Shown here one piece after another: positions 5,379-38,852 of a stretch of DNA of 64,000 bases. A program made the translations under genes and the position numbers. A model generated the notes under the pieces. That model was given only the letters and a program-made list of their open reading frames with translations. It did not search any database and was not told where the DNA came from. This stretch comes from Boletus sp. NGJ (Eukaryota > Basidiomycota > Agaricomycetes > Boletales > Boletaceae): the NCBI GenBank assembly GCA_019096195.1, contig JAGTXK010000185.1, positions 248,001 to 312,000 on the forward strand. Reading direction: 5' to 3'. How positions within the stretch are numbered: the stretch's first letter is position 1; each line of letters begins with the position of its first letter.

Positions 5379-5853
5379 TGTTATAATATACGAAATTTTC
5401 AAAACTTTGCATACAAACACTTACTTTTCATTTTCATCAACCTTTTTCCTCATAAATCATGTGACTGTGCACATGACCGTGGAAACACATCACATGATAG
5501 GTCTAGAACCTATGACATCATATGACGTCACACCTCATGTGATCCATAACTCTTTAATTTCTGCTTTTCTCACACAGCCCCTTTAATCTCTGTCTTACTA
5601 TACTTAGTAAATTATCACATGCACTGCTTGGTCCGTGCACATCTTCATCATGTATATAAAGTAGCACTTTGATGACTGGTAACCACAGTCTAATCCACTT
5701 GTATTCTTCCTCCAACAATAGCTTTGGCCACTCTGGTCATTGTAGGGTTGGGAATAGTATGGACTAAGACTCCCCACCTCATCTGTTGAGCCAGGCTTTG
5801 TGTAACCTGTGAATAGTTCGAGCCTTGTGGTTTGTGCCGAAAGGTTCATAACA
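5379..5853 (+). repeat. D1 5' LTR
   Basis: 475 bp, starts TGTTATAATATACG and ends GGTTCATAACA, so the termini are inverted (TGTTAT/ATAACA). U3 holds TGACATCATA (5513-5522) directly followed by a palindromic CRE-like TGACGTCA (5523-5530). TATATAAA ends at 5660. Confidence 0.95.
5653..5697 (+). promoter_or_regulatory. D1 core promoter and presumed transcript start
   Basis: TATATAAAGTAGC at about 5653-5665, then AGTCTAATCCA at 5687-5697, about 30 nt downstream of the TATA box. The 11-mer is the reverse complement of 5856-5866, just after the LTR. The TATATAAAGTAGC string is also present in the E LTR. Confidence 0.65.
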
Positions 5854-5855: not shown

Positions 5856-5866
5856 TGGATTAGACT
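5856..5866 (+). promoter_or_regulatory. D1 primer-binding site, self-priming type
   Basis: TGGATTAGACT begins 3 nt after the LTR and is exactly complementary to AGTCTAATCCA at the presumed RNA 5' end. D2 keeps both arms unchanged; D3 has one difference in the downstream arm. Confidence 0.65.
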
Positions 5867-5950
5867 ATATACACAACGCTCGGACTCCAGAGCTAAGAAG
5901 ATCATATGTGGACCCAGTGTTAAGGGACATCTGAAGTATTCGCCACTTGA

Positions 5951-6205
5951 CGGTGACAAGAAAAGCACTTGCCAAAACGCTTGCACATACGCTCGTCCAG
6001 TGTTATAAATAAGGATAAAGTTGCTGCTGGGCATAGTGCACTAGCTCCACTTCTTAGGTGGTTGCCAACCTAAGCATACGTTGATTCTACAATAGTGAAT
6101 CCAGGTTCGCATGATTACCTGTGACATCACACAGTGCGATAGGAGATTTTATCTCGACTTATCTCTGTGCACACCTGCTAGTAGTAATGCAGTTATACTC
6201 CAGTC
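5951..6205 (+). promoter_or_regulatory. D1 leader block shared with family E
   Basis: Non-coding leader between the primer site and gag. It aligns by eye along its length with E 18,541-18,790, sharing landmarks such as the TTATAAAT stretch, GGGCATAG.GCACTAG, GTGAATCCAGGTTCGCATGAT and CCTGTGACATCA. Homologous blocks occur in D2, D3 and C2. Purpose unknown; packaging, translation or dimerisation signals are possible. Confidence 0.7.
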
Positions 6206-6461
6206 CTCCTACCACTGTTGCCCATCATTTTTAACGACTTATACTTCAACTCCTATGAAGGTGTAGGTGCCCCAGAACTTGGTTGTAAGATACCAGGTAG
6301 TAAGGCACTGAAAGAAGACCAACCTAGGAAAAGGAAAGTTTACCAAAGAAATTCCGACAAAGTCAGACCACTCCACCCATCCTCCGCATTCACCTTATAC
6401 TGCATTGCCATCCATCACTCATACCTCCGACCTACATCACTCCTAAAACCTGTCACCAGAT

Positions 6462-7631
6462 ATGTCTTGCGTCGACATTGATGATCTGGTCAAGAAACTC
6501 GCTGACCTTACTCAGAAACACGACAAGGAAAATATCACGAAAAAGATCGCTGATCCTAGGAAATGGGATGGCAACAGAACCACCTTTCGAGTATGGTGGA
6601 TTAAGCTGTGCCTCTGGGTCGACGCTCAGACCTGGAAAAATGACAAAATAATGGATATCGCAGTCTTGTCCCAACTCGAAGGGAAAGCAGAGAGTTTCGC
6701 TCAACTCATAATGGAGCATTATCTCAATGAAGAGGCAACCATTGAGACGGACACAAATGGGGTCATGCTGCCGGCAAAAGGAGCCAATGCTTGGCCTACA
6801 TGGAACCGATTACAGGAACAGATCAAAACACATTTTTGCATTGACACATTAAGACATGAGTCTCTTAGGAAACTAGAGGCTCTAAAACAAAACGGTCACC
6901 CAATTGATCTGTTCTTGCAAAAGTTTGAAATCTTAAGGAAGGAATCATACATAGACAATCACCATGCAGAGGTCCTCCTCAAAAAGGCAGTAGATTTTAG
7001 AATCTACGAAAGGTCGCACATGAATAACCCAGCGCGAAATTATGACTACGAGGATCTAGTGTTGAATTACAAAGTAATTGGGAGGGCGTTCAAACAAATG
7101 GTGAACGAACGCGGACCGCCCAGCCAATCATGTCAACCTCCGCAATCATCCTTCCCCCTGCCTCGTGGGCAACCCCCACACAATTCATACCGCCCTCAGT
7201 ATACGGCAGTGGGCACACAACCAGGCTGCGGCGCCCCAATGGAAATAGGAGTCCAGCAGGCTGGACCATCAAAAGACACAAGGACCTGTTTCCACTGTGG
7301 CAAACCTGGTCACATAAAACCAAACTGCTCTACCAACCCATTTAAGAGAACAGGTCGACCGCCTATGCAAAGGCAAATCTGGGATTGGAACCAAGGCTCA
7401 TACATCAAGCAAACACAGGGAGAAAATGAGTATCCCCAGTTTTTTAATGAAACCCAATCCAGACAAGCATACACAGCACAACCATCACTGCAACCTCCTG
7501 TCGCCACAGCAGCACCAAGTGTGGCATCAAGATCATATGTATCGGAAGAAGCTGAAGCATACTATAGGGATAAATTCAAGGTAGAGGCTAAAGCCAGAGC
7601 TGGTCAGGCTTTAAATGGACAGCGCCAATGA
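6462..7631 (+). CDS. gag: D1 gag
   Basis: Open frame of 389 codons. Residues of about 1-60 hold an N-terminal segment beginning MSCVDIDDLVKKLADL; about 40-220 resemble the retrotransposon gag capsid domain (RTTFRVWWIKLCLWVD, then LRHESLRKLEALKQNG, LFLQKFEILRKESY); a Pro/Gln-rich linker follows; residues about 276-289 (7287-7328) are a CCHC knuckle, CFHCGKPGHIKPNC, that binds nucleic acid. Gag assembles cytoplasmic particles. The start is supported by the same opening in D3 (MSHMDINELVQKLADL). The stop TGA overlaps the next ATG as ATGA. This frame is intact, but the element as a whole is broken. Confidence 0.9.
   Translation: MSCVDIDDLVKKLADLTQKHDKENITKKIADPRKWDGNRTTFRVWWIKLCLWVDAQTWKNDKIMDIAVLSQLEGKAESFAQLIMEHYLNEEATIETDTNGVMLPAKGANAWPTWNRLQEQIKTHFCIDTLRHESLRKLEALKQNGHPIDLFLQKFEILRKESYIDNHHAEVLLKKAVDFRIYERSHMNNPARNYDYEDLVLNYKVIGRAFKQMVNERGPPSQSCQPPQSSFPLPRGQPPHNSYRPQYTAVGTQPGCGAPMEIGVQQAGPSKDTRTCFHCGKPGHIKPNCSTNPFKRTGRPPMQRQIWDWNQGSYIKQTQGENEYPQFFNETQSRQAYTAQPSLQPPVATAAPSVASRSYVSEEAEAYYRDKFKVEAKARAGQALNGQRQ
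7628..7631 (+). promoter_or_regulatory. ATGA stop/start overlap between gag and pol
   Basis: The gag stop TGA and the ATG of the protease frame share four bases. The same ATGA is present at 27,520-27,523 (D2) and 37,099-37,102 (D3), both minus strand. Such overlaps can support termination-reinitiation; here that is inference from position and conservation. Confidence 0.55.
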
Positions 7632-9575
7632 GTAAAGAGGGAACTCAGCAGCACAAACAATCTTCTTTTTCTTCTCTTACAAACTGTACCAGTAGCGATT
7701 TTCCAATTTTTGATCTTTCTTCTATCTTACGTAAATTATCAATACAATCCGCAAGGGCGTCTCAATTGAGCATGGCATTGGACACAAGTGTGCTTAATTC
7801 CCTTGTCAAACAACAAAAAATATCTCATATCTATAAACCCACGAAAGTCACATTGAACCAAGCATCTACGTTATCCTATGGTGGAGAATTCTCCCTCAAA
7901 ACCATAGTATCATGCAACGTCAATGGACAGTGGTCGTGTTACCGTTTCCAATCCCTCTTGGATTCAGAAGCATCACATACTTTTATTGATCAGAACTACG
8001 TTAAACGTCACGGCATCCCATTCTATGATATCAAAAACCCCATTAAGATACATAACACTGACGGCTCGGAAGGAGCTATCGGACTGATCCGTCACGCGGT
8101 AACACTGATGGTGGAAATCCAAGGACATTATGAAGTCATAGATGCTTATATATCAAAACTAGGAACCCATCAAATGATCATCAGTTACGACTGGCTCTAT
8201 CGCCACAATCCTGATGTCAATTGGGTAAAACAAACAATTACCTTTCCTTGTTGCACTTCATACTGTAAAATTATGGGACTAGGCCCTACTTCTTCTTACG
8301 AACCAGTTAATCTTTGTACTATAGAGGAAGGACTCAAAGAAAAAGTTCTGCTAACTTATCATGAATTTCTAGATGTCTTCTCGGAGAAAGAATCCCAAAG
8401 AATGCCCTTATGAAAACATTGGGATCACGCCATTGATCTCAAAGAAGATTTCATTCCAAAGAAAGGACGTGTCATTCCCCTTTCGGACATCGAAATGGAA
8501 GAAGTCAGAATGTTTATCAAAAAGGAAGTCAAGAAGGGTTATGTCAAACCTTCAAAATCTCCACAGACATCACCCGTCTTCTTCATCCCCAAAAAAGACA
8601 GTAAAAAATGAATGGTAATGGATTACCGCTATTTAAATGAAGGAACTATCAAGAATTCCTATCCACTCCCTCTCATCCTGTAACTAATTGATAGACTCAA
8701 GAACGTGGATTTATTTACAGCAATGGACCTTCGATGGGGATACAACAATATACGTATCAAAGAAGGCGACGAATGGAAAGCAGCCTTCATCACCCCCATC
8801 GGAGCTTATGAACCAACCGTTATGTATTTCAGACTTATGAACTCTTCTCCTACATTTCAGACCATGATGAACAATATTTTTAATGACATGTATACTGTAG
8901 TCATTATTTACATTGACGACGTCATGATATTTACATCTGGAAAGTCCAAAGAACAGCACGAAGAAGTTGTAAAGGAAGTTCTACGCTGCTTATGCGAGAA
9001 CAATCTTTATGTAAAACTGGAAAAGTGTACCTTCTCGGCTGATAAAGTGGACTTTTTGGGTATGGTAGTATCCAAAGAGGGGGTAGAAATGCAGTCAAAA
9101 AAAGTAGCTGGGGTCATGGATTGGTCAATACCTACAAGATTAAAACAACTCCAAGGCTTCCTCGGACCATGTAACTATTATAGACGATTCATAGAAGGCT
9201 TCACGCAAATCACTCGACCCTTAAATGATCTTACCAAGAAAGACATTCCATTCAAATGGGGTCCAGAACAACAAGAAGCTTTCTCAAACCTAAAAAGAAA
9301 ATTTACGGAAGCACCGCTTCTCGCGTACCCAAATCGTGATCAAGAAATGTGTGTGGAAACCGATGCTTCTGACATCGCCACAGGAGCTGTGCTCTCTATA
9401 TTATGCAATGATGGTAATTGGCGACCAGTCGCCTTTATTTCACATTCCTTTGACAGCGCAGAGCGTAATTATCCAATTTATGACAAAGAACTGCTAGCAG
9501 TGATTTGTGCCCTGGAAGAATGGCGACATTATCTTATAGGTCGAGAAGGATTCGAAATCTAGACCAATCATAAAA
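7628..9575 (+). pseudogene. pol: D1 pol: protease, reverse transcriptase and first half of RNase H
   Basis: Protease-like segment at about 7880-8240 (LLDSEASHTFIDQNYV, then MIISYDWLYRHNPDVNW). RT at about 8420-9250 with [18 protein letters not shown] and the catalytic YIDD at 8909-8920; thumb GFLGPCNYYRRFIEGF near 9155-9205. RNase H begins near 9355 (ETDASDIATGAVL, then ERNYPIYDKELLAVICALEEW). Domain order and lengths match Ty3/Gypsy pol. The region is open for most of its length but carries a few breaks, so it is treated as a fossil part. Confidence 0.88.
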
Positions 9576-9577
9576 AC

Positions 9578-11290
9578 TTGGAATATTGGAAAAAACCCCA
9601 AATGCTTAGTGGACAACAAGCACACTGGTATGCACTATTCCAAGAATTTAATTATTCTTTTGTATATAAACCAGGTTCCTCAAATGAAAGAGCCAATGCT
9701 CTTTCCAGAAGACCAGACCATGGTGACGCAGTGCAAGATCACAATCAAAATGTCACCATTCTCCCACCATCTATATTTATAAATCATGTTTCCCTATCTT
9801 CAGACTTCATAACAAAAATCCAAAAAGAATCCAAAAAATATAACGTAGACGCCATAAACAATTTCCTTTTCTATTCCAAACTTAGTTTATTCAAAAACGA
9901 AAAAGACAAAATATTTGTTCCCAAATCCTTATGTACTGAACTCATTACTTTATGTCATAACTCACCGATAGCAGGACATGGTGGTCATTCTAAAACTATT
10001 CATACACTCTCTTGTTATTTCTTGTGGCCAGGAGTCACAAAAGACGTTAAAGAATATGTAGATCACTGCCAAGTGTGCGCCCTCATGAAGGGTAAGCAAA
10101 ATGCACCGGCAGGAAAAGTTATCCCTTTACCCGCAGCAAAAAGACCCTGGGAAGATTTATTGGTAGACTTTATAACCGGTCTACCTCAATCACGATCATT
10201 TACCGCTATTTGTGTTGTTGTAGATAGATTCTCAAAAGAAGTCATCTTTATACCTACCTACAATACCTGTTCCTGGAAGGACCTTGCAGTGTTATTTAGA
10301 GACCATGTTTGGTCAACACACGGACTCCCCTCAACCCTCGTATCAGATCGAGGACCCCAATTCATGTCAGCGTTTACCCAAGAGCTTTGTAAGCTTCTTG
10401 GAATTAAACAAAAGATTTCCACCGCATGTCATCCACAAACAGACAGACAAACAGAGCGCATTAAGCGAGATCTCGAGCAGTATCTCCACGCATATGCTGG
10501 AAAGAAACAACATGATTGGGTAGAATGGTTGAAGCTCGCTCAATTCTCGCATAGCAACACAGTAACAACAGCAACTGGCGAGATCCCCTTTAACGTCACC
10601 AGAAACTACATACCGCGTATGGGTTTCGAAGGGCATCTTACCAGTTTCGCAAATGAGATTGGACGAAACCATAAAGAGATAGAAGAAGTGCTGGAAGCTA
10701 CACGAGAGAGGATGATCACCTCTTCCAATAAAAAACGATCCCCTGCACTAGAATATTCTATTGGCCAACAGGTTTGGCTATCCACAGATAAATTAAAACT
10801 TCCATACACGGCGAAAAAACTTACCCAAAAATGGATTGGTCCTTACATCATCACTTGGATCCTTCCTAATGCCGTAACACTTAAACTCCCAAACTCTGTT
10901 CACATTCACCCAACTGTGAACATCTCTTGCATCAAACCTTATAAAGAAACGCTGCCTGGACAGCCTAAATCTCGACCTGACACTATAGATATTGATGAAG
11001 AGGGAGAAGAGCTATTTGAAGTCGACTTTATTGCCGCTTCTCGAATGAAGAAAGGCAAATTAGAATATTTGGTTCACTGGAAAGGTTATGACGATACTGA
11101 TCGTACTTGGAAATCTGAAGAAATTCACATCACTGCACCGGATGCAGTTAAAGATTTCCATTGTCTAAACCCATCCGCACCATGCAAGCTTCGTGGTTTA
11201 TCCGCTTCAGCATTCGCTTCTCTATTTATTCCTTATGAAAACTTCACCGAAAATGAAAAAACAACGACTCATCTGGAATTCGAGTCCTAA
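9578..11290 (+). CDS. pol: D1 pol: end of RNase H, integrase and chromodomain
   Basis: Long open frame of 570 codons. It starts in the RNase H tail (LSRRPDHGD), then has an HHCC zinc segment (GHGGHSKTIHTL, HCQVCALMKG), the integrase core (LLVDFITGLP, VSDRGPQFMSAFTQEL, HPQTDRQTERIKRDL) and, near the C-terminus (about 11,010-11,160), a chromodomain of the form YLVHWKGYDDTDRTW. Integrase inserts element DNA into chromatin, and the chromodomain of chromoviruses is thought to steer this to marked histones. The insertion of this element into another element, and of E into D2, fits such targeting. The ATG at 9578 is internal to pol, not a true start. Confidence 0.9.
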   Translation: MEYWKKPQMLSGQQAHWYALFQEFNYSFVYKPGSSNERANALSRRPDHGDAVQDHNQNVTILPPSIFINHVSLSSDFITKIQKESKKYNVDAINNFLFYSKLSLFKNEKDKIFVPKSLCTELITLCHNSPIAGHGGHSKTIHTLSCYFLWPGVTKDVKEYVDHCQVCALMKGKQNAPAGKVIPLPAAKRPWEDLLVDFITGLPQSRSFTAICVVVDRFSKEVIFIPTYNTCSWKDLAVLFRDHVWSTHGLPSTLVSDRGPQFMSAFTQELCKLLGIKQKISTACHPQTDRQTERIKRDLEQYLHAYAGKKQHDWVEWLKLAQFSHSNTVTTATGEIPFNVTRNYIPRMGFEGHLTSFANEIGRNHKEIEEVLEATRERMITSSNKKRSPALEYSIGQQVWLSTDKLKLPYTAKKLTQKWIGPYIITWILPNAVTLKLPNSVHIHPTVNISCIKPYKETLPGQPKSRPDTIDIDEEGEELFEVDFIAASRMKKGKLEYLVHWKGYDDTDRTWKSEEIHITAPDAVKDFHCLNPSAPCKLRGLSASAFASLFIPYENFTENEKTTTHLEFES

Positions 11291-11301
11291 AGAGGGGGTA
11301 G
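11289..11301 (+). promoter_or_regulatory. D1 polypurine tract
   Basis: AAAGAGGGGGTAG lies directly before the 3' LTR and just after the pol stop. This is the plus-strand primer position. The E and A elements have AAAAGGGGGTAA and AATGGGGGGTAA at the same place, so GGGGGTA next to the LTR is common to all three families. Confidence 0.8.
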
Positions 11302-11776
11302 TGTTATAATATATGAAATTTTCAAAACTTTGCATATGAACACTTACTTTTCATTTTCATCAACCTTTTTCTTCATAAATCATGTGACTGTGCATGTGAC
11401 CATGGAAACACATCACATGATAGGTCTAGAACCTATGACATCATATGATGTCACACCTCATGTGATCCACAACTCTTTAATTTCTGCTTTTCTCACACAG
11501 CCCCTTTAATCTCCGTCTTACTATACTTAGTAAATTATCACATGCACTGCTTGGTCCGTGCGCATCTTCATCATGTATATAAAGTAGCACTTTGACGACT
11601 GGTAACCGCAGTCTAATCCACTTGTATTCTTCCTCCAACAATAGCTTTGGCCACTCTGGTCATTGTAGGGTTGGGAATAGTACGGACTAAGACTCCCCAC
11701 CTCATCCATTGAGCCAGGCTTTGTGTAACCTGTGAATAGTTCAAGCCTTGTGGTTTGTGCTGAAAGGTTCATAACA
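11302..11776 (+). repeat. D1 3' LTR
   Basis: 475 bp direct copy of 5379-5853 with 18 differences counted by eye, all transitions and many between CG and TG or CA. The integrase of element A resumes immediately after it. Confidence 0.95.
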
Positions 11777-12565
11777 TCAATCCGATGGAGAAACGGAATG
11801 GGTCAACCAGGAGATCGAAACCTACCTCTGGATCTTCTGCGGCAGCGAACCCACTACTTGGGCCGAAAAGATCTCTCACGCCGAATTCACCCATAACCAC
11901 TGACCCCACTCTGTCACTGGTCAATCTCCATTCTTCCTTCTCATGGGATATGAACCCCATGCCCTTCCTTCGATCATCCCCAATTCCACAATCCCTGCCC
12001 TAGAGGAGCATATTCAGAAACTCTCTGCTGCAAGGAATGAAGCCTTGGCAGCCTACGAACTCACACGACAAGTCATGGCCTCTCGAACTCGTCATCACTT
12101 CACCCCATTCAAGAAAGGTGATCAGGTTTGGTCAGAGGCCAGAAACCTGAAATGCTCTGTCATGGACCCAAAGTTCACATCAAAGCGAGAAGGCCCCTTC
12201 ACCATCACAGACATCCTATCCCCAATCATTTATAAACTCCGTCTCCCAGCTACATGGAAGATCCACCCAGTCTTCCATGCTTCACTTCTCACTCCGTGTC
12301 ATGAAAACACCACATACAGCAAACACTTCGTCAAACCACCACCTGACCTGATAGCCAGTGAAGAAGAATACGAAATTGATAAGGTCTTATGACATTGTGA
12401 CTCCCTGTCTCGCTGCTCCTTCCTGATCCGATGGAAGGGATACTCTGCAGAAGAAGACTCCTGGGTTTCCAAGTGGAATCTGAAACATGCCAAGTCCGCC
12501 CTGCTCGACTATAAGAAACGTCACCCCAGGGTGTTCCCTCCCATCGTCTCTCTCACCTGCACACC
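11777..12565 (+). pseudogene. Element A integrase, part after the D1 insertion, with chromodomain
   Basis: Continues the integrase of element A: a C-terminal segment with HHFTPFKKGDQVWSEARNL and PKFTSKREGPFTITDIL (about 12,090-12,220) and HPVFHASLLTP near 12,270-12,300. A chromodomain-like segment follows at about 12,410-12,480 (FLIRWKGYSAEEDSWV). Fossil part. Confidence 0.85.
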
Positions 12566-13740
12566 ATGACCATCTCCCTTGTTGTTCACACCACAGCCTC
12601 CTCCAATGCTGCCATGTCTTCCTCCCCACATATTGTTTCTACAATACCTGATAGCCGTACTATCTCTCCTACTCTCTCCTCTCCTTCATCACTCTCACAT
12701 TTTGACACCCCTCTTGACGACAACTCTTGCCCTGGTTCTCCTTTGTTACCTCCTCCCCACAGCGAACCTCGCCTTCCACGCCCACCAACACCAGTCTCAT
12801 TAGCCTCTACCCCCACGCCGATCATGTCGGTGGACGTCCCCATCTGTGCCACACGTCTCTGCAACGACTTTCCAGATCTAGCTGAGGTTACCTGTCTCAC
12901 AGATAACCTCAAAGACCCATGCATGGCCTTAGGTCTTGGAGCCCACTTAGATTATGCCTCCCCTCTGTACTCCCTCTACAAGGCGTACCTGCAAGCGGCC
13001 AACCTAGACACTATCGCCAATCATACTACCGCCAACGCCCATCTCTCCTTGACCCAACTCCACCTTCAGGGCATCTCCAGTGAACTAAAAGCAGCGCTTC
13101 TTAATGCCCTTCATCAACTAGGAGCCGTAGAGCTCCTTGACGACCTTGACAGGTACATGAGAGACTTAGCCAACCGTCGCTCACCAGTAGCACTCCCTGC
13201 ACCCTCCACACCATCCACGTCATTGTCCCCTCTAGGCGAGGAAGAACTCACAGTCGTTCGCTGCGAAGAGGCCTACTGAACGGGTTGTGATGGATCGGTC
13301 CCACTAGGACCTTCCCACCCTCACTACTCTGAAGCCTGTTATCAATGCCACCGTCTTGGTCATCTACGAGTTCACTGCCCAGTCTACCAATGCCCCCAAT
13401 GTCTTCATTGGGAACCTGGTCATACGCAAGCCCGCTATCCCCTACGCCGTTGTCTGAACCCACAGACACCATCCACCTTGTCATCGTCGTCCAGTTGCGC
13501 TCCCTCCTCCCCCCGTTCAGTCTGCCATGTATTACCCCCTCCTTCTACCCACAGCAATCATCTCGCATGCTGTCACTCCTCCCTCCACCGTCTCACTGCG
13601 GAGGTTACTCACCTGAACTGCGCTACCGTAATACCCGACCTTTACGGCGACCCTGATGTCTTTAACAGCACTGTCATGAGCAACATGACCGGATCCCCTT
13701 GTGGGTCTTACCACAGTCTGGACTAAATCGCTCAGTGGTA
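12566..13740 (+). pseudogene. Element A extra frame downstream of the chromodomain, with two Cys/His knuckles
   Basis: A second coding-like region lies between the integrase and the 3' LTR, where Gypsy elements usually have only a short untranslated tail. The open part at 12,566-13,279 starts MTISLVVHTTASS and is Ser/Thr/Pro-rich, followed by a helix-rich part (LYKAYLQAANLDTIANHTT) and a negatively charged end. At about 13,330-13,445 a knuckle pair is encoded: CYQCHRLGHLRVHCPVY and CPQCLHWEPGHTQ. I do not recognise the product. The knuckles suggest nucleic-acid binding, perhaps a second nucleocapsid-like protein. Fossil part of a broken element. Confidence 0.6.
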
Positions 13741-13750
13741 CTTCGCATGT

Positions 13751-13762
13751 AATGGGGGGTAA
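13751..13762 (+). promoter_or_regulatory. Element A polypurine tract
   Basis: AATGGGGGGTAA immediately before the 3' LTR, at the position of the plus-strand primer. Confidence 0.7.
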
Positions 13763-14298
13763 TATTACGATTCACCCTTTTCCTTGTCCTTTTCTCTTCT
13801 TTTCTTTACTTTCCATCAGTTGTGCTCACTCTTGTCTCGTCCTCTTGATTCCCATGGACCATTCGCTACACAGTGGGACTCCGTGCAGTCGAAACCCTTT
13901 TCTCTCACGATCTGTACTTCTACGCTGACATCATATGGAAGATCCCTTCCTATTCCCACTCCATAGGATCTCTCCGATGCTGTGGCTGACTCATCCCCTT
14001 CCCATGCTTACTTCATATATAAACCTTGCATTCGTAGTCGATCCCCAATTTACACCTACTTGGTGAACTCCCATCATCATTCTACTTTGAGTGAATGCTT
14101 CTTCTGTGTCTTGACTTCACTCCTACCGAGTGAACCTTTGACCCTACGACGAGGAAGACCCTCTGTCATTGAACCCTTGACTCTACGACGAGGGATCCTT
14201 CATCTCAGAGCTCATCCAGCTCTTCCCTCAACCTCTGTAGCTTGTTACTACTCGACCATCCAAGTTAGCACCTATCTCTACCCAAGGTAGTCGTAACA
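13763..14298 (+). repeat. Element A 3' LTR
   Basis: 536 bp direct repeat of 812-1334, ending GTAGTCGTAACA and followed by the target duplication TGTGG. It is longer than the 5' copy because of a partial internal repeat of the GAACC..TTGAC..CTACGACGAGG type at about 14,130-14,200. Confidence 0.93.
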
Positions 14299-14875
14299 TG
14301 TGGACAGCACCCTGTGCTGTGATGAGATTGCCAAAGCATCCTGCTGGGTTGCTGCTGTGGAGGTAGGACAGCATAATTAGGATCTTCTGATAATCTCTTG
14401 GGTCCAACTCGAAGCCTGAGAGGTAGAGCTTCATTGTATGCCACCACAAGATGAACTTCTCCTTGTTGCCATTGTAGTATTCGGGTTTAGCAGCAAGTGA
14501 TTTTCCCAACTTGGATGATGACCCTGGAAAGCCACATGCTGGTTCGCATGGATTCCTGGGGGATGAGGGAGAGCTGGAGGTAGGCAGGAGCAGTCATTGT
14601 GGCAGAGAGGGTTGTGGGGGCAGCATCTCCTGCATGAGGTTAGGAGGGGAGGAGGTGGTGGCCCAGCCATGGCTCCTGCTCTCTCATATATCCTTTGCCA
14701 CATGCTGAATGCAGCTAGCCATGTGCTGATGGGGTCCATAGGCAGGATGTGGTGTTGACGGTGGAGAAGTGGGTTGGTTGGGGTGGTTGGAATGAGATCT
14801 GGAGGCATTGACTATCCGAGAAGCCTTTACAGCAAAGCCACTAGGGGGTCTTGTGGGGTTGGTACCTCTAGTCAG
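14299..14875 (-). mobile_element. C1: old Ty3/Gypsy relic, right piece (gag N-terminus and leader)
   Basis: Minus-strand continuation of the C1 relic after the insertion of element A. Segments such as GKSLAAKPEYYNGNKEKF and WWHTMKLYLSGFELD match element E gag (GKSLASKLDHYDSNKDQF, WWRTMTLYLNRFETE). Upstream on the minus strand is the Pro-rich gag leader. At about 14,875 it meets the truncated C2 pol. Broken many times; old. Confidence 0.75.
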
Positions 14876-16397
14876 CTGCATGATAATTTTTTTCCACATC
14901 ATTGAAGGAGTGGGAGATGAATGCGATAGGGTGCCAAACACCATCATGTTTCTGGGAGAGGACAGCACCAATGCCAATGCTGGAGCCATCAGTTTTGACA
15001 TGATAGAGGTTATTGTCTGTCAGCATGGCAAGGGCAGGTGCTGTGGAGGAGGTATCAGTTGCAGCATGTTACTGCATTGAGCTTGTGGTAGTCTTGTATG
15101 TGGTGGAGGCATCTGTCTTTCTTCTTAATGAAGAAGAACACTGAGGTGAATGGAGATTTCAAGGGGCATATGTGCCTGGACTTAAAGTTCTCTTCGAGGA
15201 TGGTGTCAAGTTCTTTTTGTTCTCCTGGGTTTAGGGGGTATACTTTGCAGTCTACCTCATGATTTCCTGGGAGTAGTTTGATCACATGATTCCAAGGGCA
15301 TCTTGGGTGGAGTGCATCAAAGCTTTCTTTCATGAATACATCTTTGAATTCATAAACGTACTCAGGGGTTGCTTTCTCAGGAGTCTTCTTTTTCTTTTGG
15401 ATGTAGTCTTTGATTGCTACTTCTGTTGCAACATTGCATATATATTCATCGCTGTCTAGTTGATAGAGTCAGTCTCTTTGCGAAGGAGCAAAGTCTTTGT
15501 CCATTTCATCGTCTTCCTCATTTACTGAGGTTGTTATGTGGTCATTACCACATGTGAATGAGATTTGTCCAGTTCTCCAGTCAATGGCTGGGTTGTGCAT
15601 TTTCAGCCAGTCATGTCCTAGAAAGATGGTGTTCAATCCAAGGTTTGTTACTGCAAGGGTGATTTCTTCCTTATGATTTCAGACCTGGAGTTCAACTATA
15701 ACAAATGTTTCGATTTTGCCTCCAGCATTGGTGTTATATATGGTAAGGGTGCATAGCAAGAAATAAGTTTGTACCCCCTTTTCAGCAATGAAGTTCTCGT
15801 GGATGGCAGATTCCATGCAGCTGGAATCAATGAGGGCTTGAACTTCTGTTTGATCTCTGTTCAATAGACTTAGTTATATAGGGATTTCAAGAGAGTCCCT
15901 TTTTGGTAGACAGGGTGATGCTTTCCTGAGTTGGGGTGTGTGTTGTAATTCACACAAAACCCAGTAGGCATTGTCTGGTGGCATTACTTGGAGTTCCTGA
16001 ATGAGATCCCAAGACACTTCAATTGTCCTGGTGTCATGGACAAAGGATTTCAGGTGTTTGATACTGTGTTCAACATCAGTGTTTTCTATCTAAGCCTTCA
16101 TCCATCATATAGATCATGGGTCTAACATGTTTAACCAGGAGCGAGAGGATGTCTCTTTCTTTCATTTGAGTTTCATTTGATGTTTTTGCAGGATTGTTTG
16201 CAAATCATTTGGTTCATCATCTCTTTTTACCAATGAATCAAAGACAACTTTTTTGAATGATGGGGGGCATTTCATGATTGTGATTTTTGCTTCTGTTATT
16301 GGGAGATTTACTTGAATTTCTTCTGGTTTAGCCTCATCACTGCAAAAAGGAGTGAAACAATTCTTTTGCAATGACTTAGATAATTGTACAGGAGAAC
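14876..16397 (-). mobile_element. C2: old Ty3/Gypsy relic, left piece (protease and RT/RNase H remnants)
   Basis: Minus-strand pol remnants of the E family. About 15,055-15,333 matches the RT start of E (LLPGNHEVDCKVYPLNPGEQ in E, nearly the same here), 14,880-15,010 matches E RNase H (GIGAVLSQK..G.WHPIAFISHS type), 15,600-15,870 is protease-like, and 16,160-16,390 is the linker after gag. Much of RT and everything after RNase H is missing. The piece is cut by D2 at 16,398 and resumes at 29,746. Broken many times; CpG-poor. Confidence 0.78.
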
Positions 16398-16873
16398 TGT
16401 TATGAACCTTTCAGAAACACAACCACAAGGCTCAACACTTGCAGGCTACACTGGTCCTGGCTCAACGAATGAGGTGGGGAGTCGTTCTCTGTGCTATGCC
16501 AACCCTACAATGACCAGAGTGGTCAAGGCAATGAGTTGTTGGAGCAGAATACAAATGGATTAGACTGGGGATTTCAGTCGTCAAAGTGCTACTTTATTTA
16601 TGTACAGGGATGATGCACAGACCAAGCTGTGCATGTGATAAATTACTTTGTATAGTAAGACAGAGATTAATGAGGCTGTGTGAGGAGAGTGGAAATTAAA
16701 AGGTCATGGATCACATGAGGTATGATGTCATTTGACATCATAGGTTCTAGACCATATTATGTAATTGTTCCCATGGTCACGTGCACAGTCATGTGACTTG
16801 AGAAAAAAAGATTTGATGAAATGAAAAGTTAAGTATGAAAGTGAAAAGTTTGAAATTATTGTATATTATAACA
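16398..16873 (-). repeat. D2 3' LTR
   Basis: 476 bp copy of 29,270-29,745. The polypurine tract (CTAAAAAGGGGGTAG on the minus strand, 16,874-16,888) borders it. Confidence 0.93.
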
Positions 16874-16889
16874 CTACCCCCTTTTTAGG

Positions 16890-17861
16890 ACTCAAATTCC
16901 AGGTGAGTTGTTGTTTTCTCGTTTTCCATGAGGTTTTCATAAGGTGAGAATAAAGAAGCAAATGCAGCAATAGATAATCCATGAAGCTTGCATGGAGTGG
17001 AAGGATATGACTTATGGAAATCTTTGACTGCCTCCAGTGCAGTGTTGGTGATGTCATCAGATTCTCAGATACGATCTGTTTCATTGTATCCCTTCCAATG
17101 CACTAAATATTCCAATTTGCTGTTCTTTAATCTAGAAGCAGTGACAAAATCAACTTCATATTGTTCTTCCCCTTCTTCATCAATCTCAATTGCATCTGGT
17201 CGAGATTTTGGCTGACCAGGCAGCATTTCTCTATATGGTTTGACATGTGAGATGTTCACAGTAGGATGGATGTGAATAGAATTGGGGAGATGAAGTGTAA
17301 CAGCATTAGAAAGGACTTGAGTGATTGTATAGGATCCTATCCATTTTTGCGTTAACTTTTTTGCTGTATATGGAAGTTTTAATTTATCCGTTGATAACCA
17401 GACTTGCTGGTCAATAGAATATTCTGGTGCAGTTGATCATTTTTTATCAGAAGAGGTGATCATCCTCTCATGTGTTGATTCCAGCACTGCTTCTATCTCC
17501 TTATGATTGCGTCCAATCTCTTCCATGAAGCCATTGAGATTTCCTTCAAACCCATGTGAGGTGCATAGTTCCTTGTGACTTTGAAGGGTATTTCTCCTGT
17601 GGCTGTAGTCACAGTGTTATTGTGTGAGAATTATGCAAGTTTAATCCAGTCTGCCCACTTGTTCTGCTTTTTTCCTGCATATGCGCAGAGATACTGCTTG
17701 AGATCTCTGTTTATGCATTCTGTTTGTCCATCCGTTTGTGGGTGATATGCTGTTGAAATCTTTTGTTTAACTTCAAGTAGCTTGCAAAGCTCTTGGGTAA
17801 ACACAGATATGAATTGTGGGCCTCGATCAGATATGGGGGTAGAGGGGAGTCCATGTATAGA
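16890..17861 (-). pseudogene. D2 integrase end and chromodomain
   Basis: Minus-strand segment with integrase landmarks (ISDRGPQFISVFTQEL and HPQTDGQTECINRDL at about 17,690-17,850) and a chromodomain at about 17,065-17,160 of the form YLVHWKGYNETDRI. It begins at 17,861, where element E is inserted; the rest of the integrase is at 24,863 onwards. Fossil part. Confidence 0.82.
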
Positions 17862-18162
17862 TGAAACATTTTCACTTTTACTCCATAGACACTTATGATA
17901 CTTAGCTAGCAGACGCTTACATATTAGCCAAGGGACTAGGTCTAGGCCCATGACATCATACATACGTCACAGAATCGCCTAAAACATTATGTCACCATTC
18001 TAGTACATTCCACACTGGCCCTAAAGGCTGGCCCGTGCTCAAGCCCATATACTATATAAAGTAGCGTACTCTGTAGTAGATATGCATTCTTGGAATTGCC
18101 TTTATACACTCGGAATATCGTTCTTAGGAGCAACTCTAAGTGTTGTGGGTCTTTTTCTTTCA
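17862..18162 (+). repeat. E 5' LTR
   Basis: 301 bp, starting TGAAACATTTTCAC and ending CTTTTTCTTTCA. U3 holds TAGGTCTAG, TGACATCATA (17,951-17,960) and ACGTCAC; the TATA box is at about 18,053-18,060. Confidence 0.94.
18053..18097 (+). promoter_or_regulatory. E core promoter and presumed transcript start
   Basis: CTATATAAAGTAGC, then ATTCTTGGAATT at 18,086-18,097, about 28 nt after the TATA box. The 12-mer is the exact reverse complement of the bases immediately after the LTR. Confidence 0.68.
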
Positions 18163-18174
18163 AATTCCAAGAAT
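18163..18174 (+). promoter_or_regulatory. E primer-binding site, self-priming type
   Basis: AATTCCAAGAAT starts at the first base after the 5' LTR and pairs perfectly over 12 nt with the presumed 5' end of the transcript (18,086-18,097). This is the layout of Tf1-type self-priming. Confidence 0.7.
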
Positions 18175-18540
18175 ACCCCTTGGTTGCTGGGCCCTTTGCC
18201 CCCCGACCACTTTCCCCCATCGCCACAGCCTCGCCGTCATCCTTAACAACGTGCTTGTCCTTTTCTCTACTTCCCTCTCCCCACATCCATTCCTCGAGAC
18301 AATTGTAGACCCTTGGGGTCCCTGTCCTTGAGAGCTTGGTTAGTGATACGCGTAATTCCAGCCTACTAGGTGGTCGCAAGCGCTGAGCACAGGCTACAAT
18401 TGAGGGAGAAGATAAGATCAGAGAACTGTTGGTTCCCACTCTTCACCCTCACCTCCTTTCCCCACTTCTGAGCGTGCAGGCTCTTCGCTGCCGTTCACCC
18501 CACACCAGACCTCAGGTTTAGAGGAACCCACTAGTACACA

Positions 18541-18790
18541 TGACGTACTCGAGTAAAGCACTTGGAGAAACACTTGTCTATACGCCTGTCCAGCATTATA
18601 AATTAGAATAACGTTGCTACCGGGCATAGAGCACTAGCCCCCTTTCTTGAGTGAGTGTCAACTCAAGTGTACACTGGTCCTATGATAGTGGACTTGGGTT
18701 CACATGATCACCTGTAACATCATGTAGCTGCGACACGGAGGTTTATCTTGGCTTCCTCCCGTGCAGCACCTTCCTGTAGTAAGGAAGTCA
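18541..18790 (+). promoter_or_regulatory. E leader block shared with family D
   Basis: About 250 bp homologous to D1 5951-6205, although the rest of the element belongs to another family. It precedes gag by about 400 bp. A related block is in the C2 relic at about 31,500-31,735. Confidence 0.7.
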
Positions 18791-19192
18791 TACTCATACT
18801 CCGGTTCCTCCGACTCTCCCCCCTCCTGATGGTGTGTGGTCTTTCTTGCTGTCATTCTTTTCAAGCTGCCTCCGGAGCAAACTCACTCCTACCAAGTCTT
18901 CCACCACAGATATGTCTGGGTGCACCCCGACTACTCCCTTGTCGTCCACACCACCCTGACCACCTACTTGCCAACACACACCCGACACATGCAGACCATC
19001 ACCAGACTAGCCCAACTCGCTGGACTGAGATGCAATGACCACAGTCCCGAGCTCCTACAGCCGCCCCACCTCTGTCACTCCCCCCACTCCTGAGAGCTTC
19101 GTGGATCTAGCACAGAGGGCCGCCACCCAGGGCCTCCCAACCCTCCAACTCAACCAGCCTGCTCCCCAACTCCCTATCTCTACCCACCTACA

Positions 19193-21240: not shown

Positions 21241-22860
21241 AAAATGCATAACCTGGCCATCGACTGGAAAACAGGACGAATCTCATTCCGATGTGGAAAC
21301 AACCACACTGTTGCATCGGTCGACGATGAAGATGACGAACAGGACAAAGACTTCACCCCTTCGCAGGGGGATTGGCTATTCCGACTGGACAACGACAAAT
21401 ACATACACAACATCGCCACAAAAGTAGCCATCAAGGACTATGTCCAGAAAAAGAAAAAGACCTTCGAGGAAGCGGCCCCCGAATACGTCCATGAATTCAA
21501 GGACATGTTCATAAAAGAAAGCTTTGATGCCCTCCCTGCCGAGACGCCCCTGGGACCACACGATCGAACTGCTCCCAGGAAACCATGAGGTGGACTGCAA
21601 GGTGTACCCCCTCAACCCGGGAGAGCAGAAAGAGCTGGACACCTTTCTCAAAGAGAATCTCAAATTCAGATGCATACACCTGTCCAAATCCCCCTTTGCA
21701 TCAGCCTTCTTCTTCATCAAAAAGAAGGATGGACGCCTCCGCCCTGTACAAGACTACTGCAAACTCAATGCGGTGACTCGTCGCAATCAATACCCCCTCC
21801 TCCTAATCACTGAGCTCATCGACAAACTCAAGGCTGCAAGATACTACACCAAATTCGACGTAAGGTGGGGGAATAACAATGTGCGAATGGCCAAAGGAGA
21901 CGAGTGGAAAGCCGCATTCTGGACAAACCACAGACTCTTTGAACCCCTCGTGATGTTCTTTGGACTCACCAACTCCCCCGCAACGTTCCAAACAATAATG
22001 AATGTGCTATTCAAGGAGTTGGTAGACCGAGGCAGAGTGGTGGTCTATATCGATAACATCATGATATTCACGAGAACGATAGAAGAACACCAAAAAGTAG
22101 TACAAGAAGTGCTACAAATATTGCGCGACACCCACGTGTACCTATGACACGACAAGTGTGACTTCAAAGTCCAAGAAACCGAGTTCCTAGGACTCATTGT
22201 CATGCAAGACAAGGTCAGGATGGACAAGAAGAAGGTCTCTGCCATCGCTGATTGGCCCACCCCAACATTCAAGAAGCCACTCCAAGGCTTCCTCGGCTTC
22301 CTCAACTTCTACTGACGATTCATCAAAAACTTCGCCATGATAGCGCGACCACTCAACACGCTCACATCGGTGAAGAAAGACTTCGTCTGGACAGACAACT
22401 GCCAAAAGGCCTTCGAAGACCTCAAAGCAACCATCATGCATGCCCCCACCCTCACCATGCCAATGGACACTGACCTCTACTGAGTCAAAACTGACAGTTC
22501 CAGCATTGGCATTGGCGCTGTACTCTCACAGAAGCAAGATGGGACCTGGCACCCCATCGCCTTCATATCCCACTCTCTCAATGATGCGGAGAGGAATTAC
22601 CACACAGCCGACCTTGAGATGCTTGCAATCATCTACGCCCTCAATGAGTGGCGTCAATACCTCCTTGATGTGGCACACCCAGTCGAAATCCTCACTGATC
22701 ACAAAAACCTGGAGTTCTTCCACCGCCCCCAAGACCTCTCCCATCACCAAGCCTGGTGGCAGCAGATTGTTCAGGAATACTCCCTGACTATCACTCACCA
22801 ATTGGGCAAAACCAACCCCGCCGACCCTCTGTCCTGGAGGTCAGACTTTGAAAAGGGGGT
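21240..22860 (+). pseudogene. E reverse transcriptase and RNase H region
   Basis: RT segment with NHEVDCKVYPLNPGEQ, SAFFFIKKKDGRLRPVQDY, FDVRWGNNNVRMAKGDEW and the YIDN catalytic region (about 21,580-22,060); thumb LQGFLGFLNFY near 22,280-22,310. RNase H follows with GIGAVLSQKQDG, ERNYHTADLEMLAIIYALNEW and LTDHKNLEFFHRPQDL (about 22,510-22,740). Fossil part. Confidence 0.85.
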
Positions 22861-24561: not shown

Positions 24562-24862
24562 TGAAATGTTTTCACTTTTACTCCATAGACACTTATGATA
24601 CTTAGCTAGCAGATGCTTACATATTAGCCAAGGGACTAGGTCTAGGCCCACGACATCATACATACGTCACAGAATCGCCTAGAACATTATGTCACCATTC
24701 TAGTACATTCCACACCGGCCCTAAAGGCTGGCCTGTGCTCAAGCCCGTATACTATATAAAGTAGCATACTCTGTAGTAGATATGCATTCTTAGAATTGCC
24801 TTTATACACTTGGAATATCGTTCTTAGGAGCGACTCTAAGTGTTGTGGGTCTTTTTCTTTCA
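24562..24862 (+). repeat. E 3' LTR
   Basis: 301 bp copy of 17,862-18,162, followed by the target duplication ATAGA and then by the D2 integrase. Confidence 0.94.
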
Positions 24863-28690: not shown

Positions 28691-28929
28691 ACACTTGGTT
28701 ACAGGTTTTAGGAATGATGAATTGTGATTCGATAGAGTGTGAAAGCTGAGGATGGTCAGAGAGGTCTTTGTCTTTTAGGATTTGCCTTATAGGTCTTCCT
28801 TGGTCGTTTTTCTTTCAGTACCTTACTACTTGGTATTTCACAACCAGGTTCTGGGGTACCTATGTAAGAGTCAAAGTATAGGTCATTGAAAATGATGGGC
28901 AAATATGTGGGGCGAACCAGAGTATAACT

Positions 28930-29170
28930 GTCATACTACAGACAGGTGTGCACGGGAAAAAGGCGAGATAAATTCCCTTATTGCAACTACGTGACGTCAC
29001 AGGTGATCACGCGAACCTGGGTTCACTATCGTAGAACCAGCATATACTTGAGTCGGCACCCACTTGAGAAAGGAGGCTAGTGCACTATGCCTAACAGCAA
29101 CTTTATCTGTATTTATAATGCCAGACGAGCATATACAACTAGTATTTCACTGAGTACTATACTCGTCACC
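28930..29170 (-). promoter_or_regulatory. D2 leader block
   Basis: Minus-strand copy of the leader shared by families D and E, including the pieces corresponding to CCTGTGACGTCA, GGTTCGCGTGATC and GGCATAGTGCACTAG. Confidence 0.65.
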
Positions 29171-29269
29171 ATCAAGTGGTGAAGACTAGAGATGTCACTT
29201 AAAATGCTGGGCCTGCATATCTCTCCTTAGCTCTGGAGTCCGAGCGTTGTGTATGCAGTCTAATCCAAG

Positions 29270-29745: not shown

Positions 29746-31750
29746 AGAACAACTGTTATCTACTGTACTAGAAGAAAAGACAAATCTTGGGCAATGTCTG
29801 AGGCATATTCTACAGTGGGCTCTGCCTGTTCAGCATCCATCATCATGGTGTGTATACTAGTGAACATCTCCAGGAATACTTCTTGTCCATTTATTATGAT
29901 GCCCCTCACTTGGCAAGAGTGGGGGCACAGGGGGTGATCAGCACATGACCAGGGCTTCGAGCACTTATGACATACTCCAGCCACACATGCTTTATCAAGC
30001 TCTATGGGAGCACCTTGACCAGTGAATGTGCTGGTTGCATTTGGGTGAGGTTTTGCTGCAGGAGTGGCTGCAATGGTGGAGGAAGGGCCCACAGGGGCAG
30101 TGTATTGAGGGCATGGTGTGAAGTGGGGGGCATAGATAGGGCCTGTTGCATAGACTAACCATTTCCTGTGGGTGATCTCTATGAGGATGTCCAAGGCTTT
30201 GACTAGGGTGGTCTCCCAGTCATAAACATTGATGGATTCTATCAGGGCTGGCTGATTCCTTTCCACAAATTCCACCATGTCAGAGTGTACTGCTCACCTC
30301 ACCAAGTCCACCATTACTCTCCTGTTGTAGCCAATATTAAACTCAGCCTCCTCGGCGTAGTAATAGAGCTTGATGAAATAGTCTTCCACCATATTCTTTC
30401 TTTGTTTTAGACCCATGAGTTTCTGTTGTGCTACATGCTTCAGGTTTGCAGGTTAGAAGTTCTTTTTGAGCTTTTCATCAAAGCTCACAAAGGTGAGAAT
30501 GTGGACAGCTCCCTATGCCATCATCAAGTCTTCAAATCTTCCTGCTGAGTTGCTACAGCAAAGATATAATAGCACAATTAAGATTTTTTAATAGTCTTGG
30601 GAAGTGGTTTCAAAACCCAATAAGTATAGTTTCATCATCCTCCACCAAGAGATGAACTTCTCCTTGTTGCCATTGTAGTACTCTGGCTTGGCTGCCAGGG
30701 ACTTGCCTAGCTTTGGCAAGGGTTCAGAGAAGCCGCACACTGCTGTCTGGAGGTTTCCTGGTGAGGAAGGAGAAGGGGGAGTTGGTGGAAGGGAATGATA
30801 GAGTAATGGTCATTGTGGCAGTAGCATTGCTGTGGTAAGGTTGGGTGGGGGAGGTGGTGGTGGTCCTACCACCATTCCCACTCTTTTGTAGATTCTCTAT
30901 CACGTATCAAAGGTGGCCAGCCATGTTCTGACCAGATCCCTGAGCAGCATGGAGTACTGTTGGTGAAGTAGAGGGTTTTATTGGTATGGTGGTTATGAGG
31001 CCAGATGGCATCTGTTGGCCCAAAAGTCCAAGTGGCAAGGCTGCCAGGGGATTTCTGGGTGAGAAAGCCTCCACTGGGGATCATTGTGTAGGGGTGGACA
31101 ATGCAGTATTAATGTCTTCAAGGGTGGCGGCCATGGCCACAAATGTGGTGCCTTAAGAGGGGCCTGATGTTGATGCTGGGGAGTTGAAACTCATTGTCAG
31201 TGAAGGAAATGGAGTGCTGTGAGTATTTCAATGAGTATATCAGTTGGTCTAATGTGGCAGGTAAGAAAGTTCCAAAGCACACAATATAGGATATTAGGGT
31301 GTGGACTGGGTTGACATGACATGATGGGTATAACCCAACAAAGATAGTGTCAGGAGTGGCTGGTAATAAATGGAAGTGGGGAATGGAGGCAACTGAGTGG
31401 CACTTGGTTGCATGCTCAAGAATTATATGGAATGATGGAGAGGTGGTCCTGTAAAGAGACCCTTGACAAGAGTGAAGATGGTCAAAGTGGAACCGGAAGA
31501 TAACTTTCATACTGCAGGAAGGTCTGCACAGGGAAAAGATGAGATAAATTCCCTTATCACACTGGCATGATGTTGCAGGTGATCATGCAAACCTGCCTTC
31601 TATAGCATCAAGGAGGGTATGGACTGCTAGGTACTCAGCAGATGATGGGGGCTAGTGCTCTATGCCTGGTAGCAATGTTATCCTTATTTAGTCCACTGGA
31701 CAAGCATATATGCAATGGCTTTGATGAGGGTCTACTCAGGTGTGTCACGC
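29746..31750 (-). mobile_element. C2: old Ty3/Gypsy relic, right piece (gag and leader)
   Basis: Minus-strand gag of the E family. About 29,760-30,278 holds the Cys/His cluster CHKCSKPWSCADH and flanking Pro-rich linker; 30,280-30,720 holds the capsid-like region; 30,720-31,510 the Pro-rich N-terminal part; about 31,500-31,735 the shared leader block. No clear E-type LTR follows, so the 5' end is uncertain. Broken many times and very CpG-poor. Confidence 0.78.
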
Positions 31751-33286
31751 TGACCTGCATCAAACTTATTTCATGCATACTCAGAAGCTAGGACTTGAAT
31801 GGAATTAATTCTACCACTTGCAGCAGTTAGAATATTCCAATACTCTAAGACCCTATGACCCTTAGTATGACCCAGCAACCCTGCAATTCTTAGAATATTC
31901 CACCAAGAAACCAAGGAGAAATTAATGCTTTTCTCCAACACATAGCTCTGTTACTATCTACAAGTACATAGCTAATAGAACTGTAAATAAAATGTATATA
32001 GCCAAGTGCCAGTGAGAGAACATGATCATGTGACCATGAGCTATACAGCCTTGTATCACCTGACTGAACATTCCATGACCTTCCATGGAGTTCTATGGCA
32101 TTCTTTGAAGTTCTATGTTTCAGTCAGCAAAAGCTTGGCATTTGTAATAAACCTCTTGGCATTAGTAAGCAGCCAACCCTTCTGATTGGCTAGCCAAGCC
32201 CATGTATTTATCATAAAAGGAGAGCCATTCAGGCCACCAAGAGAGCAGATCACCTCTCATATAGGGCATCTCAACCAGAGAAGTTCTCTCAAGGAGAACA
32301 ATTCTCACCCCTACTTGGAGTACCACTCACAGGCAATCCACAGAGGACCTTGAGGAGGACATTCTCCAATTGTTTAGACAGCTAGTTGATTGTTAGGAGT
32401 AAATTCTTGTAGCCAATAGTGCACAAGAAATATAGGACACCTTTTGGGAGAAAACCCTAAATAGGGCAACAAAAGGGAATAGATCCCCAACAGTTTAATT
32501 CTACTAGACCCTAAACATCCCTGCTACTCTGCTGACTGCCCACGTAAGAGGATAAGTGACAGTACAGCCAAACAAGCACTGAATTGCACTCTCCTTAGCA
32601 AACAATAAGATTAAGTTACTATAACCTATCTGAGTGACCTAAGTGTAGTGTGAACCTATTCCAGCCTTATCTGAAAGATCTCAACATCTTGACAATCTAG
32701 CATATCTGCAGATTACCAGCCACAAAGTCATTGCCTTTTATAGCAATTGACTCATTTGACCTTCTTAAAAAGCCTACTAACCAAAGTCTAGCAACCTAGT
32801 AGCATTGACTAGTATACCTTTAGACATGTATGTTTACAGTTGTTTACACTATTAACCAGACTACAGTTGAAACCATTTCAATTCCAATTCTTCAGCATTT
32901 GTTGGGAATTGGTGAACAACCCATGCACTTAGTTACACTAAGTATTCAACTGACTCAAACCTTGCAGACCTAGAGATTGTTTCATCTAGGAGGTAAAAAT
33001 TCCCCTAGCTTATAGTGTTCTAACCATGGGAGGCAAAGCAAACATTTGGGGAAACCTGTTGTTTGAAAATGGATTTCCATTGCTTTTGCCTGCATAGAAG
33101 TCAACGTACACCAATGGATTCCTCTTAAGCCTTAGGTCCAGCTATGGGGTGTCTGTGATGAAGGGTCATGAGGACGAATAATGAAAAGAAAGTGATGGAT
33201 AGTAAAACAAACCAAAAGAATCTCCAAGCTCCTTATCTTCTCTGCTAGTTGTAGCTTATGCTCAATGCTAACAATCACCTAGATAC
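31751..33286. other. Gene-free, CpG-poor stretch
   Basis: No coding pattern on either strand. Only a handful of CG dinucleotides occur in 1.5 kb. TATTTATCATAAAAGG near 32,205 looks like a TATA region, and the stretch from about 31,742 to 32,490 could be a decayed solo LTR, but I found no second copy and no convincing target duplication. It may include the lost 5' LTR of C2. Confidence 0.5.
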
Positions 33287-38765: not shown

Positions 38766-38852
38766 TGTAGATGTCCCTTAATGCTGGGCCCACATATACA
38801 AAAGTCTCCTTAGCTCTGGAGTCTGAGTGTTGTGTATATAGTATAATCCAAG

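What the first reader, a model, noticed from the sequence alone, without database searches (positions are those of the whole stretch)
5951..18790. A leader block of about 250 bp is shared between families D and E, whose proteins differ
D1 5951-6205 and E 18,541-18,790 align along their length, and related blocks are in D2 (28,930-29,170), D3 (38,540-38,765) and C2 (about 31,500-31,735). Yet D and E have different LTR lengths (475 against 301 bp), different gag cysteine clusters and different integrases. Either a control cassette was exchanged by recombination or it is under strong RNA-level constraint, for packaging, dimerisation or translation.
Basis: partly seen in the sequence, partly recalled or inferred. 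Interest (0 to 1): 0.72.

Follow-up and report, generated by a model that had tools for sequence, protein, structure and literature searches.

The report
Swapped RNA module in retrotransposon leaders
Retrotransposon families that otherwise differ carry, in one eukaryotic genome, the same roughly 290-nucleotide folded RNA module in their leaders, and parts of it have been swapped between families, which points to a shared step in the life cycle such as packaging their RNA or starting DNA copying.

Summary
D1 5959-6200 and E 18552-18795 align at 73% (E 1.8e-33); the next best match in the first 2.3 kb of the two elements is E 0.001. RT is 48% and integrase 33% identical in protein. The block is about 290 nt; its core pattern has 222 genome matches against 0 for the reversed control. 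It is a conserved RNA structure: 18 of 75 proposed pairs covary beyond a tree-aware null (7 of 75 by the stricter all-pairs standard, against 0 of 45,075 other pairs). It has also been exchanged: by transversions, the D core (columns 121-200) lies inside E's own diversity and C far outside, while in columns 1-60 C goes with E and D lies outside (five mosaic copies set aside); those mosaics carry all or part of another family's core. A fourth gypsy family lacks the block (12 of 12 loci). In 13 selected CpG-rich copies the leader has 0-2 AUGs, which fits scanning better than internal ribosome entry. Best reading: a cis-acting packaging, dimerisation or reverse-transcription module of the Ty1 leader kind. 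That function is inferred, not shown.

The parts
5913..6206 (+). D1 leader block (structured RNA module)
   Evidence: limits; match to E; covariation
18511..18801 (+). E leader block
28914..29211 (-). D2 leader block
   Evidence: profile
38519..38788 (-). D3 leader block, with a deletion that removes much of the 3' large hairpin
31490..31781 (-). C2 leader block (in the alignments, but not in those)
5379..5853 (+). D1 5' LTR (475 bp)
11302..11776 (+). D1 3' LTR (96% to the 5' LTR); 5-bp flanks CCAAT/TCAAT
17862..18162 (+). E 5' LTR (301 bp)
24562..24862 (+). E 3' LTR; 5-bp target duplication ATAGA
5687..5697 (+). D1 putative self-primer downstream of the LTR TATA box
   Evidence: 11-nt exact complement of 5856-5866
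5856..5866 (+). D1 putative primer-binding site
18086..18097 (+). E putative self-primer
   Evidence: 12-nt exact complement of 18163-18174
18163..18174 (+). E putative primer-binding site
6462..7631 (+). D1 gag (one CCHC knuckle), downstream of the block
8684..9562 (+). D1 RT/RNase H
9563..11290 (+). D1 integrase with chromodomain
21515..22147 (+). E RT (45-48% aa to D1)

Best explanation
The block is a cis-acting RNA domain of about 290 nt in the 5' leader of self-priming Ty3/gypsy elements, at least D being a chromovirus. Shown by sequence analysis: it keeps a set of covarying hairpins; it is shared by families D, E and C and absent from the F loci examined; parts of it have been swapped between families; the surrounding leader of selected CpG-rich copies is nearly free of AUG. 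[quoted passage not shown] Different families would keep compatible versions, their RNAs would sometimes be co-packaged, and reverse-transcriptase template switching in the conserved stretches would swap the cassette. Ribosomes would reach gag by scanning the AUG-poor leader.
For: Restricted sharing. Abundance: 40 scored matches each, a cap; 222 matches, control 0. RNA constraint: 92.1% of cells paired, covariation 0.360 against 0.178 in shuffles (0 of 500) and at most 0.131 when slid; 18 of 75 pairs significant within the structure set, 7 of 75 by the all-pairs standard, 0 of 45,075 other pairs. Exchange: core transversions D-E median 3.8% (0-8.9) against E-E median 3.8% (maximum 12.5) and C-E minimum 20.3%; columns 1-60 the reverse, D-E minimum 20.0%, C-E median 5.1% (five mosaic rows and L068 set aside). 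L054 (C flanks) carries an E/D-type core; L051 and L064 (E flanks) a C-type core. The pol genes put E nearer to C than to D. AUG depletion. Self-primer complement. Position between LTR and gag. Ty1 and Ty3 precedent.
Against: No experiment. Single copies do not fold better than shuffles (z +0.50, -0.79, -1.04, -0.62). The structure tested was predicted from the same alignment, which favours it. The pseudoknot and the two enclosing helices are mostly paired but not individually significant. In columns 61-120 and 201-300 D-E and C-E distances do not conflict (medians 5.9 and 8.5, 9.2 and 9.1), so the exchange rests on columns 1-60 and 121-200 and on the mosaics. The apical palindrome of one hairpin is not universal (A/T alleles). 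Passages of a review say a role of the Ty1 pseudoknot in packaging could not be demonstrated. Family F does without the block. E as one clade on the whole-block tree is rejected only at p 0.036.
Confidence: 0.55

Rival explanations
1. The block is a translation element: an internal ribosome entry site, or a structured enhancer of gag translation.
For: It lies upstream of gag; its structure is conserved; the leaders are long, 791-943 nt from the inferred start to the putative gag AUG in 13 copies.
Against: Those 13 CpG-rich copies have 0-2 AUGs in the leader where dinucleotide shuffles average 4.0-7.3, which suggests that ribosomes scan it. That disfavours internal entry but not a role in scanning or translational control.
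Confidence: 0.2
2. Pure vertical inheritance: D, E and C share the block from a common ancestor and only its strong constraint kept it alike.
For: The structure is constrained; family labels cluster on the block tree, 4 changes against 20.2 in shuffles; two of four segments show no conflict.
Against: Columns 1-60 and 121-200 group the families differently; mosaic copies; E-E pairs of equal block identity keep alignable flanks and D-E pairs do not; D falls inside E on the block tree (E as one clade p 0.036).
Confidence: 0.12
3. The block is an RNA transport or export element, or a host-protein binding site, used by different elements in one nucleus.
For: Sharing by families with different Gag proteins would be natural if the partner is a host factor (inference).
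Against: No Rfam family matches it (only sub-threshold rows), though a host-protein site need not be in Rfam; family F lacks it.
Confidence: 0.13
4. Nested insertion or assembly makes the block look shared.
For: The window is a nest of insertions (E inside D2, D2 probably inside C2, D1 inside F).
Against: Block copies with family-specific flanks lie on many contigs.
Confidence: 0.01

Closest known systems
Ty1 TIPIRT domain (Saccharomyces, Ty1/copia); abstract and passages of PMC5454406 seen
   Different: Ty1 is primed by tRNA and its domain extends into gag. Here the elements are gypsy, self-primed, the domain lies in a long leader and is swapped between families. No function has been tested here.
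Retroviral packaging and dimerisation signals and cross-packaging; passages of PMC5086612 seen
   Same: Different viruses can package each other's RNA and recombine by template switching.
   Different: No Gag binding or packaging data here; recombination is seen only as mosaics fixed in the genome.
Tf1-type self-priming retrotransposons (mechanism recalled; only search listings seen)
   Same: An 11-12 nt stretch after the TATA box is complementary to the primer-binding site in D1, D2 and E.
   Different: I know of no large conserved leader domain in Tf1 (recall, not searched beyond).
Ty3 genomic RNA 5' end; abstract of PMC11381356 seen
   Same: Ty3/gypsy; palindromes near the 5' end proposed to start dimerisation.
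   Different: Ty3 uses a tRNA primer (passages of PMC4974528); no sequence relation was tested.
Sirevirus conserved non-coding motifs; abstract of PMC2829016 seen
   Same: Conserved non-coding elements in otherwise very divergent LTR elements.
   Different: Those are LTR repeats, polypurine tracts and junctions in copia elements, not a folded leader module swapped between families.

Membership tests
Ty3/gypsy chromovirus (host element D) | Order RT/RNase H then integrase, with chromodomain | tested here: met
   D1 9563-11290: H2C2, rve and Chromo; RT before it
Ty3/gypsy chromovirus (host element E) | Same | tested here: inconclusive
   E has RT and RNase H matches and integrase homology to D1; a chromodomain was not scanned for in E
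Tf1-type self-priming | Start of the transcript complementary to the primer-binding site | tested here: met
   11 nt in D1, 12 nt in E and D2; none of 8 nt or more in the D3 stretch examined; transcript start inferred from the TATA box only
Conserved structured RNA | Covariation beyond phylogeny | tested here: met
   18 of 75 pairs (7 by the all-pairs standard), 0 of 45,075 other pairs
H-type pseudoknot inside the block | Both crossing helices covary | tested here: inconclusive
   94.8% and 92.0% of cells paired but no pair significant
Ty1 TIPIRT / retroviral psi domain | Needed in cis for packaging, dimerisation or start of reverse transcription | not testable with these tools
   needs experiment
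Known Rfam family | Score over the family's cut-off | tested here: not met
   no hit; four rows far below cut-off
Internal ribosome entry site | Initiation independent of scanning | tested here: inconclusive
   AUG-poor leader of 13 CpG-rich copies argues against the need for it

The most novel reading that the evidence does not exclude
The block is a shared packaging passport: retrotransposon families that are only about half identical in RT keep interchangeable versions of one RNA domain, so that particles of one family can package and copy RNAs of another, and the core swaps are the fossil record of that co-packaging.
Probability: 0.3. Interest if true: 0.75.

Novelty: new variant of a known kind. 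Interest (0 to 1): 0.6.

Why it matters
For most LTR retrotransposons outside yeast the packaging signal is unknown (recall). A leader domain with helices supported by covariation over dozens of copies gives a concrete candidate, and the swapped copies are natural experiments: they show which parts are interchangeable between families. It also shows that RNA modules in leaders can move between element lineages apart from the genes, so trees of elements made from RT miss part of their history.

Tried and rejected
Known RNA identity: no Rfam match in the D1 region at E up to 10 or in the whole window at gathering thresholds; five genome copies gave four rows far below cut-off. No tRNA gene in the window. 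Single-sequence folding energy: not better than shuffles, so not used. Dimerisation through the apical palindrome: both A and T alleles occur in E and C, so not claimed. The first clustering of loci was wrong because loci of minus hits are given on the contig strand; it was redone and searches are not used.

Limits of the sets. Family labels were set by hand from the downstream clusters, and rows not named C or D were counted as E. At a looser cut-off E and C merge. L058 there repeats the block of its neighbour L015, and many rows are near-identical; searches use 55 rows under 95% identity out of 75. The window's C2 block (L039) is not in the alignments, because its profile match fell short of my length cut, and D3 is not in them either; D2 was added from then on. 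L068 fits none of the three families well and was left out, but is. L051, L054 and L064 were left out of the family means; these three with L060, L062 and L068 were left out of the ranges because they are mosaic or odd, so 'C-E never under 20.3%' holds only without them; they are reported separately. The scripts stopped at a late line; their printed parts are used and the rest was redone. The covariance model was not used in any search.
Full report
SETTING. The window lies in a 32.8 Mb, 141-contig genome. It holds nested Ty3/gypsy LTR elements: D1 has RT, RNase H, H2C2 integrase and a chromodomain. From the comparisons, D1 interrupts the integrase of another element (F, 1338-5377 continued at 11778), E interrupts D2, and D2 probably interrupts C2 (reading mine). 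E has a 5-bp target duplication and D1 one with a single difference. A decayed rRNA gene elsewhere in the genome looks fungal to me (by eye and recall, not tested).

OBSERVATION. D1 and E align strongly only in the leader block (5959-6200 with 18552-18795, 73.1%, E 1.8e-33). Between the CpG-rich copies L087 (D) and L028 (E), the block is 81.4% identical and the next match has E 0.93, over 2.3 kb of L087 and 3.3 kb of L028. Elsewhere D1 and E are 48% (RT) and 33% (integrase) identical in protein. In the 68 loci first fetched, the stretch of about 1.45 kb downstream falls into three groups of 37 (E), 18 (C) and 7 (D), with 6 singles, yet similarity in the block runs across the groups. A 25-base core pattern with up to 2 mismatches has 222 matches in the genome and 0 for the reversed control. 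A fourth gypsy family, F, has no block in 12 of 12 gag loci by BLAST and by profile search; two of these loci are identical to each other. F is about as far from E and D in RT as these are from each other (pieces of 41-58% aa).

STRUCTURE. On 23 rows of the core, a structure of five helices including an H-type pseudoknot has 92.1% of cells paired, 14 pairs changed on both sides and a covariation score of 0.360, against 0.178 in shuffles (0 of 500 as high) and 0.056-0.131 when partners are slid. On 55 non-redundant rows of the whole block (of 75), RNAalifold gives a multibranched fold. Against a null in which each column's substitutions were redistributed on the tree (30 simulations), 18 of 75 pairs have E under 0.05 within the structure set; counted over all 45,150 pairs, 7 of 75 pass and 0 of the other 45,075. 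The structure came from the same alignment, which favours it. The significant pairs lie in six helical regions from the 5' hairpins to the last one. The pseudoknot helix, the helix around the core and the closing helix are mostly paired but conserved or varying without significant covariation, so they are consistent rather than proven. Single copies do not fold better than shuffles.

EXCHANGE. Many copies have lost CpG sites (0-32 CpG per block), which inflates identity differences, so I compared transversions. In core columns 121-200, D-E is 0-8.9% (median 3.8, 640 pairs), inside E-E (median 3.8, maximum 12.5, 780 pairs), while C-E is never under 20.3% (560 pairs). In columns 1-60 it is the reverse: C-E median 5.1% and D-E at least 20.0%. 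In columns 61-120 and 201-300 there is no conflict (five mosaic rows and L068 set aside). The mosaics show the swap directly: L054 has C flanks and an E/D-type core; L051 and L064 have E flanks and a C-type core; L060 and L062 are intermediate. In pol, E is nearer to C than to D: the stretch that I take as the rest of C2 matches E at 71.6% in DNA over 1372 columns and at 45-75% aa in same-sense pieces, while E-D1 pieces of over 60 aa are 25-48%. At 72-82% block identity, 600 of 627 E-E pairs share at least a quarter of the downstream 1.2 kb and 0 of 301 D-E pairs share any; 5 of 301 D-E pairs share something upstream (rows include near-copies). The whole-block tree puts D in one clade (100/99) inside E; E as a single clade is rejected only at p 0.036, in a test prompted by that tree. 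So constraint and exchange are both real. The gradient of D-E identity fits repeated template switching better than one clean transfer (inference).

LEADER AND TRANSLATION. The 14 of 14 copies with 27 or more CpG in the block have no AUG in it; many are near-identical. The 8 E copies with 19-24 CpG have 0-2, and D copies L087-L091 (21-22 CpG) have none. For 13 copies that I picked from these sets, the leader from the TATA box plus 30 to the first AUG at least 200 nt past the block is 791-943 nt long and holds 0 AUG in 10, 1 in 2 and 2 in 1; shuffles average 4.0-7.3 (fraction of shuffles as low 0.000-0.025) and the reverse-complement control CAT occurs 6-15 times. They come from D and a few E subfamilies, so they are not independent. 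Copies poor in CpG have up to 10 AUGs in the block. D1 itself, with an open gag, carries two AUGs in its block and one between the block and gag, so the depletion belongs to the less decayed copies. The gag start of D is placed by homology to D1; that of E by an AUG 229-238 nt after the block in most E copies, in frame with an open reading frame in L083, which also has an earlier in-frame AUG.

SELF-PRIMING. An 11-12 nt stretch a little over 30 nt after the start of the LTR TATA box is the exact complement of the sequence just after the LTR in D1, E and D2; none was found in the D3 stretch examined. This is the Tf1 arrangement (recalled).

HOW IT MOST LIKELY WORKS. A folded domain between the primer-binding site and gag, conserved in structure and compatible enough between families to be swapped, fits a recognition domain for genomic RNA. 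[quoted passage not shown] Retroviruses can cross-package each other and recombine by template switching (passages, PMC5086612). Caution: a review states that a packaging role of the Ty1 pseudoknot could not be demonstrated (passages, PMC4974528).

NOVELTY. The kind (a structured retrotransposon leader) is known. This RNA family and its swapping between gypsy families did not show in the listings, which cover only open-licence papers.

Noticed in passing
5687-5697 with 5856-5866; 18086-18097 with 18163-18174: D1 and E look self-primed in the Tf1 manner: the inferred transcript start is complementary to the primer-binding site.
   Followed up: partly
5498-5532 and 17937-17971: The two otherwise unlike LTRs share about 36 bases that hold CRE-like motifs (E 0.001; motif name recalled), perhaps a common enhancer.
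   Followed up: no
genome-wide, e.g. L040 against L016: Some copies have lost nearly all CpG (0-3 per block against 32 in others), which suggests methylation-driven decay and creates upstream AUGs.
   Followed up: partly
window 18164-18510; the matching stretch upstream of the block in C loci such as L040: E and many C copies also share a second leader stretch of about 250 nt or more upstream of the block; it gave no match in D loci L001-L008.
   Followed up: no
44788-46221 (-): Pieces of a PIF1-like helicase, possibly of a Helitron.
   Followed up: no
43986-44462: A sequence about 70% like the D LTR, probably a diverged solo LTR.
   Followed up: no
L093 (G000:C81): An rRNA gene copy that looks decayed, followed in its spacer by what looks by eye like an LTR element of E type.
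   Followed up: no
L068 (G000:C102:46837-50066): A block copy that fits none of families D, E or C well; its flanks match few other loci.
   Followed up: partly
L087-L091: CpG-rich D copies have no open frame over 185 aa in the 2.3 kb fetched, although by CpG they look less decayed than D1, whose gag is open.
   Followed up: no
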